From Bacteroidaceae bacterium (GTDB lineage: Bacteria; Bacteroidota; Bacteroidia; Bacteroidales; Bacteroidaceae): a stretch of 46,898 bases of DNA. The notes under the pieces are model-generated. The model did no database searches. It saw nothing but the letters and a program-made list of their open reading frames with translations, and was not told the DNA's origin. Location: assembly GCA_017962495.1 (NCBI GenBank), contig JAGCVH010000019.1:1-46898 (forward strand), written 5' to 3'. This document shows positions 1-46,826 of the stretch, piece by piece; position 1 is the stretch's first letter, and each line of letters begins with the position of its first letter. Both the position numbers and the translations under genes were made by a program.

Positions 1-140
1 ACAATGGACAATGGACAATGGACAATGGATAATGGACCATTCTGACATTTCTTGCTCCGTTGCTCTACGCAAGCGTCACTGCTTCGCAGATGCCGAGCAG
101 ACATTTGACACTTGACATTAGACATTAGACATTAGACATT
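1..140. repeat. Intergenic period-7 repeat arrays
   Basis: Bases 1-40 are about five copies of the heptamer ACAATGG, slightly degenerate at the right end. Bases 101-140 are copies of a TTAGACA/TTGACAC heptamer. Between them (about 46-100) lies a GC-richer stretch with TTGCTCCGTTGCTCTACGC, which resembles the complement of sequence near 1278-1293 and 46,740-46,780. No gene is seen here. The arrays belong to a wider set of period-7 arrays in this window. Confidence 0.8.
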
Positions 141-1245: not shown

Positions 1246-1326
1246 CACCTCACCCCTGCCCTCTCCCAAGGAGAGGGAGTAGCGGAGCAAGAAATTATGA
1301 ATTATGAATTATAAATTATGAATTAG
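1246..1326. repeat. GC-rich hairpin element plus ATTATGA heptamer array
   Basis: An 8-bp perfect hairpin (CCCTCTCC-CAA-GGAGAGGG, 1259-1277) is preceded by CACCTCACCCCTGCC and followed by GAGTAG, the same layout as the elements at 19,246 and 19,338. After it come ATTATGA, ATTATGA, ATTATAA, ATTATGA, ATTAG (1294-1326), ending six bases before the lyase start codon. No TAnnTTTG box was found here, so the lyase may depend on upstream transcription. Confidence 0.8.
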
Positions 1327-1331
1327 ATAAA

Positions 1332-2333
1332 ATGAAACAGTTTGAAAAGATTGAGGGTCTCATTGATGCCCCGTTTACTCCGTTCAAGGAGAATGGTGAT
1401 GTGAACTTAGAGCCAATACCGCAGTATGCCCAGATGTTGGCAAAAAATGGGTTGAAAGGCGTGTTCATCAATGGTTCGAGTGGTGAAGGCTATATGCTGA
1501 CGAGCGAAGAGCGCATGCAGATTGCCGAAGCATGGATGAAGGCTGCACCGGAGGGATTCAAGGCTGCGATTGAGCGAGAGGAGAGCGATGCTCGCATCAG
1601 CTTTTCCGAGCGTGAGCAGGCTCGAACGAAGTTCAAGGTAATCGTACACGTAGGCAGTTGCTGTGTCCGCGAGAGTCGCCGACTGGCCGAACACGCGCAA
1701 AAGATTGGAGCCTGGGGCATTGGCGCTATGGCACCCCCATTCCCGAAGGTGGGACGCATAGAAGAACTGGTTAAGTACTGCGAGGAGATAGCCTGCGGTG
1801 CTCCTGACCTGCCCTTCTATTTCTACCACATCCCTGCCTTTAACGGTGCTTTCCTGCCTATGGTGGAACTGCTGAAGGCTGTGGACGGACGCATTCCCAA
1901 CTTCGCAGGCATCAAGTACACCTTCGAGAGCATCTACGAGTACAACCAATGCCGTCTGTATGCCGGTGGCAAGTTCGACATGCTGCATGGGCAGGACGAG
2001 ACCATCCTACCCTCTCTTGCAATGGGTGGCGCACGCGGAGGCATAGGCGGAACCACTAACTACAACGGACGCTGTCTCGTGGGCATCATCGAAGCCTGGA
2101 AGCAGGGCGACCTGGAGAAGGCTCGTGCCTTGCAGAACTATGCCCAAGAGGTCATCAACGTGATCTGCCACTTCCGTGGTAACATCGTCGGAGGCAAGCG
2201 CATCATGAAACTCATGGGTATCGACCTCGGTCCTAACCGTACTCCATTCCAGAACATCACCGACGAAGAGGAGGTTCGCCTGAAGGCCGAACTCGACGCC
2301 ATCGACTTCTGGCATCATTGCAACGAACTCTAA
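1332..2333 (+). CDS. nanL: N-acetylneuraminate lyase with an in-frame insertion
   Basis: Class I aldolase of the DHDPS/NAL family that splits N-acetylneuraminate into ManNAc and pyruvate in the cytoplasm. Seen: the substrate-loop motif INGSSGEGYML (about residues 46-56), the YFYHIPAFNGA segment with the catalytic Tyr, the Schiff-base Lys in FAGIKYTFES, and GIGGTTNYNG near the C-terminus. At 333 residues it is about 25 longer than the roughly 308 expected for Bacteroidetes relatives. The excess is one block after AAPEGFK, bounded by the 7-bp repeat TTCAAGG at 1557-1563 and 1632-1638; without it the text reads straight from AAPEG into FKVIVHVG. The block falls before predicted strand beta-3, so the enzyme may still fold. 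The symporter gene follows 52 bp downstream. Confidence 0.93.
   Translation: MKQFEKIEGLIDAPFTPFKENGDVNLEPIPQYAQMLAKNGLKGVFINGSSGEGYMLTSEERMQIAEAWMKAAPEGFKAAIEREESDARISFSEREQARTKFKVIVHVGSCCVRESRRLAEHAQKIGAWGIGAMAPPFPKVGRIEELVKYCEEIACGAPDLPFYFYHIPAFNGAFLPMVELLKAVDGRIPNFAGIKYTFESIYEYNQCRLYAGGKFDMLHGQDETILPSLAMGGARGGIGGTTNYNGRCLVGIIEAWKQGDLEKARALQNYAQEVINVICHFRGNIVGGKRIMKLMGIDLGPNRTPFQNITDEEEVRLKAELDAIDFWHHCNEL
1557..1638 (+). repeat. 75-bp in-frame insertion in nanL flanked by a 7-bp repeat
   Basis: TTCAAGG occurs at 1557-1563 and again at 1632-1638, exactly 75 bp (25 codons) apart. The interval has small hairpins (GAGC-GAT-GCTC and GAGC-AG-GCTC) and encodes a charged peptide rich in Glu, Arg and Ser (EREESDARISFSEREQAR). 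Frame is kept on both sides and there is no stop. Confidence 0.75.
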
Positions 2334-22039: not shown

Positions 22040-22071
22040 CAAAGGTACAAATAAGTGAGTAAAAACGCAAA
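22040..22071 (-). promoter_or_regulatory. Promoter of purB
   Basis: TTTG (complement of 22,068-22,071), 20-base spacer, TACCTTTG (complement of 22,040-22,047), giving a leader of about 20 nt. Its spacer (ACTCACTTATTTG) is shared in part with the two 53-bp repeats further upstream. Confidence 0.8.
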
Positions 22072-22087
22072 TATATTTGCAGTTTTT

Positions 22088-22221
22088 CGAACGAAAGCAC
22101 CTTCGACGAGGTCAATGGTACGAATAAGTGAGGGCATAACAAAATAAATCTTAATTTATTTTTTCTGCCGAATGAAAGTACCTTCGACGCAGTCAATGGG
22201 ACGAGTAAGTGAGGGCATAAC
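22088..22221 (-). repeat. Two 53-bp direct repeats upstream of purB
   Basis: 22,088-22,140 and 22,169-22,221 match at 47 of 53 positions and are 81 bp apart. Both contain ACCTTCGACG and end TAAGTGAGGGCATAAC. The part reading GTACGAATAAGTGAG resembles promoter spacers at purB (GTACAAATAAGTGAG) and tig (TTACGAATAAGCGAG). Confidence 0.85.
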
Positions 22222-42400: not shown

Positions 42401-45400
42401 TTCTTTTCACCAAAACTTAAAGTTGAGAAACCACCTAATGCTGTGTCGAAGGAGCCATCTTCGAACCATATTTTCGAGCGCCCCAGGCTACCTGTACCAT
42501 TGTATTTTTCAAAGTGAATCGAGGAGGTAACGAGAGGCACAGGAACATTGACGTTGTACTGAACTTCGATGACCATCACATCCGATAAATTTGTCATGGT
42601 ATAGAACGTGTATCCTTCATAGTTGGGGTCGTCCGGTGTGGTGCCAGGCAAGGCTGTAGTCACATCAGTGCCATTAACGATAATCTTATCAAGATAGGTG
42701 TTGGGGACACGAAGTTGCAGACTTGTCGCATTATTTATTGTTTGCCATAATGTGCCCCCCTCTTGGGAGATGGAAGCCACTTGTGTGTTACCCTTCCACA
42801 CTTCAATTCCCTTGTCGCATACCCCAGCTATCAACACCAAGTTCATATTATGCTCCTGCGAATGGTCTCTCAGGTAACCAGGCGAAGCTGGGCTGTCGAT
42901 ACATGCGTATGACGCATCAACATGAGACGCATCGTAGAGTGTGCCATTGCCACCCACCAGTTGTGTGCAGTTAGTAAACATATTGCTGGAATTGGTGACG
43001 GCTTGGGTGCTCCAATTGCCACCGGCATAGATGACTTCCAAGATGGAACATTCGCGGAACATATTGCTCATGTTTGATACCTTTTTGGTGTTCCAGTTCG
43101 TCAGGTCGAGAATAGTGAGAGCAGAGCAGTTGCGGAACATGTCGCTCATGGCAGTTACGTTACTAGTATTAAAGCCTGTCAGGTCGAGGTTTCCCAACTG
43201 GGTACATCCGTAGAACATCTCAGACATCATCGTTACCTGACTGGTGTTAAGGTTCTCGATGCCGCTGATAGTTGTCAGGCTACCCATATCGCGGAACCAG
43301 CGGTAGGTGCTTTTGGACCGAGCGTTGGCAAACGAGGCATCGAAAACTACGCTGGTGACGGCACTAGACACAGAGCTTACCCACCCGGGAGAGTTGCTGC
43401 CCGTAGGCAAATCGTAGCTCGTGCCTGAACGCGAGCTGCGTTGCGTATCGCAGTAGAACGTCAGCGTGGTATTTCCAGAGGTGTATACGGCATAGGATTC
43501 GTCGGATTTCTCAGTAAGATAGCCAGGGGTGCCTGAAGCATCGATACGGGCATAGGTCTTATCGACGTTCGAACTACTCCATCTTGTGCCGTTTCCGCCC
43601 ACCAGAGAGGTGCAGTTGCCGAAAATAGTATTATAGACAGAAACGCGATCTACAGTCCATCCGCTACCCACATATATGGTGGTAAGGCGACTGCAGCTTT
43701 CGAACATTCCCTCCATTTCGCCAGCTCCAGAGGTGTCCCAACCGCCTAAGGTGAGGGTAACGAGGTTGGAGCAGCCACTGAACATATAACTCATATTCCA
43801 GACTCCACTGGTTTGCCAGCCTGACAGGTCGAGGTCGGTGAGAGCGGAGCAGTTCTTGAACATGTTTTCCAGCTTACCATTGTTGTTCCCAAGGCTAGGA
43901 GTTTTCCACTTGCTGATGCCGGTGATGGTGGCCAGATGGTTGCAGAGCGAGAACATACCGCTCAGGTCGGTGACGCTGTTGGTATTCCAACTACTCAGGT
44001 TGAGACTGGTGAGGGCGGAGCAGCCACTGAACATGTAGCCCATAGAGGTGACGTTGGAGGTATTCCAACTGCTGATGCCATTGATAGTGGAAAGGCTGGA
44101 ACAGCCGCTAAACATACTATTCATGCCGGTAGCAGCAGAGGTGTCGAAGCCCGTCAGGTTGAGGGTGGTTAAGGCTGAGCAGTTTTTGAACATTGCGCTC
44201 ATGCCCGTAACGTTGGCAGTATTGAACGAACTCAGGTTGAGAGAACTTATGGTAGAACATCCATTGAACATTGAGTCCATAGAGGTGACGTTACTGGTGT
44301 TCCAGCCACCGCCGAACGAAATGCTCGACAGGTTACTGCATCCAGAGAACATACCGTCCATGCTGGTGACATTGGAGGTGTACCAGTTCAGGACGAGAGT
44401 GGTAAGTGAGGAGCATCCGTGGAATATGCCACTCATATCAGTGACGTTAGAGACATTCCAACTGCTCAGTCCAAGGTTGGAAATGTTGGAAAGTGCAGAG
44501 CATCCATCGAACATGTAACTCATATTTGTTACATGGCCAGTATTTATTGTACCACTATAAACGAAACCCGTCAGATTGCTGCATCCCTTGAACATGCTGC
44601 TCATATTGGTAACGTTGGTGGTATTATACTTGCTCAGGTTGATACTGGTAACGTTAGTGCAATTTTCAAACAAGCTGCTCATGTCGGTTACATTGCTGGT
44701 GTTCCAGTTGTTACCATAGGTAATGTTCCCCAGGTTGCTGCATCCTCGGAACATACCACTCATGTTGGTAACGTTGGAAGTATTGAAGCTACCCAGACCG
44801 AGGAAGCCAAGGGCAACACAGTTGTCGAACAGACCACTCATGTTGGTGACGTTCGAGGTGTTGAACGAACTCAGGTTGAGGTTGGTAAGTTTGGAGCAAC
44901 CTGAGAACATACCACTCATGTTGGTGGCAGCCGAGGTGTTGAACGAACTCAGGTTGAGGCTGGTAAGTTTGGAGCAACCTGAGAACATACCACTCATGTT
45001 GGTGGCAGCCGAGGTGTTGAAGTTCGTCAGGTCAATGCTAGTGAGAGCGGAGCAACCATCGAATATGTTACTCATGTTGGTGAACCTGGTGTTGGTCCAG
45101 CCACTCACGTTGAGGGAGGCGAGGGCTGAGCAACCGTGAAACATATCGCTCATGTTAATAAGATTGGCTGTGTTCCATCCGCTCAGGTTGAGGCTGGTAA
45201 GGGCATAGCATCCAGAGAACATCTCACTCATGTTGGTGACATTGGCAACGTTCAAACCACTCAAATCGAGGTTAGTGAGAGCTTTGCAGCCTTCAAACAT
45301 ATTGCTCATGTCAGTGACACTTGTGGGAAAGTATTGAAGATTAACAAGGGTCGTCAGCAGGGGCATCCCTCTAAACCAATTGTGGGTGCTGGTGATGGGA

Positions 45401-46667: not shown

Positions 46668-46826
46668 CCCCTCTCCCCGCTTTCCCGATGGGGAGAGCCA
46701 TGCTTAGACACTAAAATAAATGCAATTTTTGCGCTCGAACTTGTTCGCTTGCGTAGCGAAAAGGAGCAAAAGGGTCAAAATGAAAAAAATACTCCTCCCT
46801 ACGGGGAGGAAAGGGAGGGGGCCTGA
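46668..46826. repeat. Two inverted GC-rich hairpin elements
   Basis: Copy 1 has CTCTCCCC (46,671-46,678) and GGGGAGAG (46,690-46,697). Copy 2 has CCTCCC (46,794-46,799) and GGGAGG (46,804-46,809) followed by AAAGGGAGGGGGCCTGAC. They face each other, as at 19,246-19,369. Between them is GCTCGAACTTGTTCGCTTGC, akin to sequence near 50-85. No gene is seen in 46,313-46,839. Confidence 0.7.

What the first reader, a model, noticed from the sequence alone, without database searches (positions are those of the whole stretch)
1557..1638. A 75-bp repeat-bounded insert is read in frame within sialic-acid lyase
Seen: TTCAAGG at both ends, exactly 25 codons apart, with small internal hairpins and a charged peptide product. 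Known: NAL/DHDPS enzymes of this lineage run directly from AAPEG to FKVIVHVG, as I recall the family. Inference: a short palindromic element inserted with a 7-bp target duplication and was tolerated between helix alpha-2 and strand beta-3, similar in principle to Rickettsia palindromic elements. Part of it (TTTTCCGAGCG...GCTCGAACG) is faintly like intergenic DNA near 46,740.
Basis: partly seen in the sequence, partly recalled or inferred. Interest (0 to 1): 0.72.

Follow-up and report, generated by a model that had tools for sequence, protein, structure and literature searches.

The report
Structured mobile DNA inside bacterial proteins
A 75-base structured repeat present in dozens of copies in Prevotella-type gut bacteria has landed inside this sialic-acid enzyme gene, and inside many other genes, so that it adds 25 amino acids instead of breaking the protein.

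Summary
Confirmed, with one correction. Window 1562-1636 is a 75-bp dispersed element inserted in frame (25 codons) in an N-acetylneuraminate lyase gene. Of 30 nanL loci read, two carry it: the window and G127, at another site 21 bp away; 14 show the empty sequence. A structural model gives 60 matches in the window's genome and 88 and 92 in two relatives. Of 230 distinct copies held, an enriched set, 44 lie in a sense frame with 40 or more codons on each side; hosts include glutamate synthase, type III glutamine synthetase and tRNA formyltransferase. The element folds into a long-range helix, a variable hairpin and a terminal hairpin, with strong covariation in the genus and in other families of the order; Rfam gave no match. 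It works like Rickettsia palindromic elements but is built differently. Its mobilising enzyme is unknown: Y1 and IS110 transposase domains were not found in the window's genome.

The parts
1332..2333 (+). nanL, N-acetylneuraminate lyase/DHDPS family (333 aa) that carries the insert
1562..1636 (+). the 75-bp inserted unit GGCTGCG...GTTCAA (25 codons); the target dinucleotide AA is at 1560-1561
   Evidence: empty site in L040
1561..1567 (+). 5' arm AGGCTGC of the long-range helix
   Evidence: covariation in other families
1616..1622 (+). 3' arm GCAGGCT of the long-range helix
1580..1606 (+). middle hairpin, sequence-variable and structure-conserved (9 of 11 pairs with changes on both sides)
1608..1623 (+). 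alternative short helix GAGC(1608-1611)/GCTC(1620-1623), which competes for the last bases of the long-range helix; no double changes seen
1560..1637 (+). encoded peptide K AAIEREESDARISFSEREQARTKFK
1293..1325 (+). heptamer array (AATTATG)4.7 upstream of nanL, of the kind that flanks many intergenic copies elsewhere; no element copy here

Best explanation
The block is one copy of an abundant, non-autonomous, structured mobile-type element of Bacteroidales. Shown: it is dispersed, its copies share a multi-helix structure kept by compensatory changes, and the window copy interrupts an otherwise uninterrupted family sequence by exactly 75 bp at AA|GG. Inferred: copies enter after an AA, usually before G, without a target duplication beyond AA. 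Because the unit is 75 bp, has no stop in its main sense frame, and AAG(G) in genes is mostly in phase 0, an insertion at a lysine codon adds a hydrophilic 25-residue segment (AAIEREQSDARISSAEREQARPKVK-like). In nanL this falls in a naturally length-variable loop between alpha-2 and beta-3, which by general knowledge of TIM barrels is on the face away from the active site, so the enzyme should tolerate it. The enzyme that moves the element is not known; my leading guess is a trans-acting single-strand (HUH-like) or RNA-based process that recognises the folded strand.
For: Copies: 92 of 139 same-genus genomes; 56 of 251 family genomes, 13 of 30 genera. Empty site. A second, separately placed copy in G127 nanL. 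GltB of G099 carries the 25 residues between K and AATPIP where G007 reads FFGFKKAATPIP (1 of the 25 GltB rows printed has the element). Pfam domains bridge the insert with extra residues: Glu_synthase 391 aa on 365 positions, LPG_synthase_C 262 on 236, DUF554 248 on 219, GSIII_N 183 on 158, FMN_red 136 on 105, Aldo_ket_red 318 on 290. Covariation: (94.4% paired against 83.1% shuffled; 168 double-change cells against 57.5; slid versions 27-40% paired). Unit length a multiple of 3 in 38 of 41 in-gene copies against 99 of 158 others. Recent mobility: the window copy is 99% identical over 77 bases to an intergenic copy in G123 while the nearest nanL (G103) is 86-90% identical in DNA. Model: insert is two low-confidence helices between H58-71 and E102-108; mean pLDDT 78.1, pTM 0.81.
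Against: No empty and filled site of one strain was compared, so transposition was not observed. Y1_Tnp and Transposase_20 were not found in the window's genome, which is only 85% complete, so no mobiliser is in hand. G-T over A-C excess, my argument for strand specificity, is seen only in the middle hairpin (49 against 8); it is 7 to 5 and 8 to 7 in two other helices and absent in the fourth. The window copy alone does not fold better than shuffles (z -0.35 RNA, 0.10 DNA). Most intergenic copies with matching 7-mers could still be read as a 7-bp duplication. Enzyme activity was not measured.
Confidence: 0.88

Rival explanations
1. Classical MITE or transposon copy with a 7-bp (or 9-bp, AANNNNNAA) target duplication; the heptamers beside intergenic copies are the duplications.
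For: 81 of 145 usable non-coding copies have at least 6 of 7 matching flanking bases against 6.8% for mismatched pairs; several show 9 of 9.
Against: Only 3 of 37 in-gene copies do, and these 3 lie in heptamer arrays; 73 of the 81 matching non-coding copies also have further heptamer units, 8 have exactly one on each side. The nanL and GltB insertions add exactly 75 bp. Head-to-tail tandem copies repeat every 73-76 bp, leaving no room for a 7-bp duplication. No terminal inverted repeats were seen.
Confidence: 0.1
2. The in-gene RNA structure is itself functional: the element is a structured RNA domain (regulatory, processing or self-removing) and its sense-only placement in genes reflects that, the peptide being a by-product.
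For: In-gene copies keep their pairing as well as others: middle hairpin 426 of 440 against 1548 of 1661 pairs. In 9 of 16 orthologous or paralogous in-gene pairs the element is significantly more conserved than 210-bp flanks, for example 77/77 in the sigma-factor trio with flanks 74-93%. One GSIII copy differs from another by a compensatory double change in the terminal hairpin. 12 of 12 in-gene insertions found by DNA search are sense, beyond target availability (P 1.8e-4, AAG model).
Against: 7 of 16 pairs show no such excess, and in two paralogues of a viral contig the element is less conserved than its flanks (83.1% against 95.5%, middle hairpin exchanged). Pairs are not independent. Recent insertion, gene conversion or selection on the peptide explain the same data. 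In-gene frames are kept open, which a removed RNA would not need.
Confidence: 0.12
3. Conserved family sequence: an ordinary lineage-specific loop of NanL, with coincidental repeats.
For: This loop varies in length: 12 of 30 nanL loci read have other loop sequences.
Against: 28 of 30 loci lack the block; it has dozens of copies in this genome and occurs in many unrelated proteins.
Confidence: 0.01
4. Assembly or binning artefact of metagenome-derived genomes.
For: The window's genome is a 104-contig draft, and many matching records are MAGs.
Against: In-gene copies recur in many separate assemblies, some at the same site in different species. Records titled as named strains also carry the element (Prevotella sp. 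tc2-28, P. aff. ruminicola Tc2-24, Prevotellaceae HUN156, Prevotella sp. P5-50, ne3005), although I did not find an in-gene copy among those loci.
Confidence: 0.01

Closest known systems
Rickettsia palindromic elements (RPE) and Wolbachia palindromic elements
   Same: Short dispersed repeats, intergenic and in frame inside unrelated, often conserved genes; proteins apparently tolerate them (PMC2229807, PMC10969869, PMC4224334, passages only).
   Different: RPEs are described as 105-146 bp with terminal inverted repeats forming a long stem-loop (PMC2229807). Here a 75-bp unit without terminal inverted repeats, a long-range helix, a variable hairpin and a terminal hairpin, AA junction, in Bacteroidales. 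No sequence relation was tested against RPE sequences.
ERIC/RU-1, RU-2/YPAL, RU-3 and the 107-bp Correia element
   Same: MITE-like repeats with open frames found fused in frame in genes (PMC2759123 abstract and outline, PMC2229807 passages).
   Different: Terminal inverted repeats and target duplications are listed for most of these; different sequences, sizes and hosts.
IS200/IS605 elements and REP/RAYT systems
   Same: Works-like only: no target duplication, terminal hairpins on one strand, insertion beside a short tetranucleotide; the 3' end TCAA recalls the right cleavage site of IS608 (recalled, from no call).
   Different: No Y1_Tnp match in the window's genome and only 62 of 139 genus genomes have one; 2 of 30 Y1 loci fetched hold an element match at E<=0.01.
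IS110 with bridge RNA
   Same: Works-like only: structured RNA, short core, no long target duplication (recalled).
   Different: Transposase_20 is absent from the window's genome and present in 18 of 139.
Heptamer direct repeats (TAACTGA and others)
   Same: Short 7-bp tandem arrays between genes, reported also in some Bacteroidetes and held to be the commonest class of such repeats in bacteria (PMC4679880, PMC4692102, passages).
   Different: Those papers' passages do not link heptamers to a structured element; here most matching-flank copies sit at AA of (AANNNNN)n arrays.

Membership tests
Rickettsia palindromic elements | Dispersed short repeat inserted in frame inside several unrelated genes | tested here: met
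Rickettsia palindromic elements | Sequence of a named RPE family / Rickettsia host | tested here: not met
   Host is Bacteroidales by record titles of relatives; RPE sequences were not compared
Rickettsia palindromic elements | Terminal inverted repeats forming one long stem-loop | tested here: not met
   Structure is a long-range helix plus two hairpins; the ends (GGCTGCG / ..TCAA) do not pair with each other
MITE | Terminal inverted repeats and target site duplication | tested here: not met
   No inverted ends; 3 of 37 in-gene copies show matching 7-mers, all within arrays
REP/RAYT or IS200/IS605 | Y1 transposase in the genome | tested here: inconclusive
   None in the window's genome, 85% complete; 62 of 139 genus genomes
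IS110 | DEDD transposase (PF02371) in the genome | tested here: inconclusive
   None in the window's genome; 18 of 139; draft genome
Known Rfam RNA family | Match to an Rfam model | tested here: not met
   Window, gathering: only tRNA; 12 element loci at E<=1: no credible match
N-acetylneuraminate lyase | DHDPS/NAL fold and family profile despite the insert | tested here: met
N-acetylneuraminate lyase | Lyase activity | not testable with these tools
   No assay; active-site residues are in invariant columns, roles recalled

The most novel reading that the evidence does not exclude
An order-wide, unclassified structured nucleic-acid family is a mobile element that moves by recognition of one folded strand and lives in genes as a dual-purpose sequence: its helices stay under selection inside the reading frame while the same bases encode a tolerated peptide. 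That would make it a bacterial SINE-like or single-strand element and an RNA domain embedded in many host mRNAs.
Probability: 0.22. Interest if true: 0.88.

Novelty: new variant of a known kind. Interest (0 to 1): 0.76.

Why it matters
In-frame 'coding' repeats have been described chiefly in Rickettsia and Wolbachia, with scattered enterobacterial and neisserial cases; a 2024 review calls it conceivable that the same happens elsewhere (PMC10969869, passage). Here it happens in gut and rumen Bacteroidales, at least some with cultured relatives, in core enzymes such as glutamate synthase and glutamine synthetase, with many orthologous filled and empty sites. That makes the question whether selfish DNA supplies new protein segments directly testable. 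The strongly covarying fold without an Rfam match also points to an unknown mobility machinery.

Tried and rejected
Rfam: no match. Y1 transposase as partner: and only 2 of 30 Y1 loci carry an element match; I did not run a formal association test. IS110. Seven-bp target duplication: first suspected from intergenic copies, set aside. L010, L287 and L296 sit in open frames that I judged spurious by eye. The peptide has no PDB match. Orientation to neighbours: element sense 20, antisense 11 between co-directional genes (own and G103 together); no conclusion drawn. Literature searches for such an element in Prevotella or Bacteroidota; nothing found in the open library, which lacks most subscription journals.

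Rows dropped: 72 of 98 copies passed a length and score filter and 71 of these were aligned (L017 left out). In one search, 182 of 230 copies had AA on both sides and were counted. In one search an end was assigned in 199 of 230. In one search, 25 of 30 GltB loci and, 19 of 30 Fmt loci matched my text pattern and were printed. In one search, 191 of 230 kept the register. The 230 copies are enriched for in-gene ones, because some loci came from the peptide search and from places with long open frames.

Full report
WHAT IS THERE. TTCAAGG occurs twice, 75 bp apart, in an open frame of 333 codons whose product matches PF00701 and N-acetylneuraminate lyases of known structure. Of the 30 nanL loci that I read (the best-matching ones; 117 of 139 same-genus genomes have a match), the window and L025 (G127) carry a 25-codon element copy, L026 and L027 carry a different short palindrome in the same loop, 12 have other loop sequences, and 14 read AAPxxFKVIV. 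The window and L025 copies are at different AAGG sites 21 bp apart, so I take them as two insertions.

A DISPERSED FAMILY. Window 1540-1660 matches 15 further places in the same genome; 92 of 139 genomes of the genus and 56 of 251 of the family, in 13 of 30 genera, have a match. A covariance model gives 60 matches in the window's genome, 88 in G099 and 92 in G103 (150 candidates scored per genome, so lower bounds). Over the order, 11 of 198 genomes match at E<=1e-8, ten of them from other families. Four viral contigs match.

STRUCTURE. On 71 aligned copies, a structure of four helices has 94.4% of cells paired (83.1% after shuffling), 16 pairs with changes on both sides, and a covariation score of 0.317 against 0.128, with 0 of 500 shuffles as high; slid versions pair 27-40%. 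The middle hairpin carries most changes; the terminal hairpin changes sequence but stays a hairpin; the helix 51-54/63-66 shows no double changes. The long-range helix varies little in the genus, but in matches from other families (21 distinct rows) 4 of its 6 pairs have changes on both sides and 95.9% of cells pair (that alignment was fitted to the model and leans towards it, but the raw sequences show the same). G-T pairs exceed A-C in the middle hairpin (49 to 8), but not in the others. The window copy by itself folds no better than shuffles.

INSIDE GENES. Of 230 distinct copies held, 44 lie in the main sense frame with at least 40 codons of open frame on each side. This set is enriched for such copies. 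In less biased sets, 3 of 44 copies read in the window's genome (nanL, vsr, fmt) and, by my judgement, 1 of 62 in G103 (DUF554) are in recognisable genes; a mechanical count of open frames gives 3 sense and 1 antisense in each. Pfam supports the hosts: DHDPS, glutamine synthetase III, Fe-ADH, FMN reductase, sigma-70, metallo-beta-lactamase fold, methyltransferase, Vsr, formyltransferase, RND transporter, aldo/keto reductase, SNF2 helicase, AAA-ATPase, glutamate synthase, glycoside hydrolase 2, DUF234 and DUF4143 ATPases, lysyltransferase, Schlafen/AlbA, C_GCAxxG_C_C, DUF554, TsaE. In GltB, G007 reads FFGFKKAATPIP and G099 has the 25 residues between K and AATPIP. The window genome's Fmt has a composite insert of about 50 residues in its C-terminal domain (150 residues on 99 profile positions; relatives). 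Unit length is a multiple of 3 in 38 of 41 in-gene copies and 99 of 158 others.

HOW IT ENTERS. The shared sequence at in-gene sites is AA, with G next in 21 of 37; tandem copies are joined head to tail through AA. Intergenic copies often sit in heptamer arrays: 81 of 145 have matching 7-mers on both sides (6.8% expected from mismatched pairs) and 73 of these have further units; only 3 of 37 in-gene copies do. I therefore favour insertion after AA without a long duplication, with heptamer arrays as frequent landing places; a 7-bp duplication in intergenic copies is not excluded. All 12 in-gene insertions found by DNA search are in one sense frame. Target availability explains the choice among sense frames but not the lack of antisense ones (P 1.8e-4 for AAG, 2.4e-3 for AAGG); similarity to the coding query copy may have biased that set.

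TOLERANCE AND AGE. The model (mean pLDDT 78.1, pTM 0.81) places the insert as two low-confidence helices between helix 58-71 and strand 102-108. The window copy is 99% identical over 77 bases to one in G123, while the closest nanL differs by 10-14% in DNA: the element moved recently. Between in-gene copies at corresponding sites the element is significantly more conserved than its flanks in 9 of 16 pairs (sigma trio 77/77 with flanks 74-93%, GSIII 91-94% with 81-82%, C_GCAxxG 98.7% with 85%), not in 7 (lysyltransferase set mixed; viral paralogues 83.1% with 95.5%). In-gene copies keep their pairing. Recent insertion, gene conversion or selection on the structure are all possible.

WHAT IT IS LIKE. 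It works like Rickettsia and Wolbachia palindromic elements (passages in PMC2229807, PMC10969869, PMC4224334) and intragenic enterobacterial repeats (PMC2759123, abstract and outline), but it fails their structural marks and is a new variant of that kind. Searches of an open library found no description of it.

Noticed in passing
L026, L027 (nanL of G016, G102); L190 (GltB of G011); L004 (own Fmt): A second, unrelated intergenic-type palindrome (CTCCCTCCCTTTAAGGGAGGG-like) or similar repeats are also read in frame inside loops of these genes.
   Followed up: partly
window 1-37, 99-140, 301-326, 1293-1325: Several period-7 tandem arrays in the first 1.4 kb of the window.
   Followed up: partly
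window 22052-22113 and 22119-22188: Two weak, tandem possible relatives of the element (E 0.51 and 0.67) near a tRNA-Val gene.
   Followed up: no
L432 positions 2146 and 4636 (viral contig): Two neighbouring paralogous genes carry the element at the same site; flanks are 95.5% identical but the middle hairpins are two different perfect hairpins.
   Followed up: partly
L444-L455 (G513, another family): Related elements with a longer terminal hairpin, often flanked by AACTAAC or AACTGAC.
   Followed up: partly
window 44827-45243: A 78-bp tandem repeat in a coding-like region (TRF, 5.3 copies).
   Followed up: no
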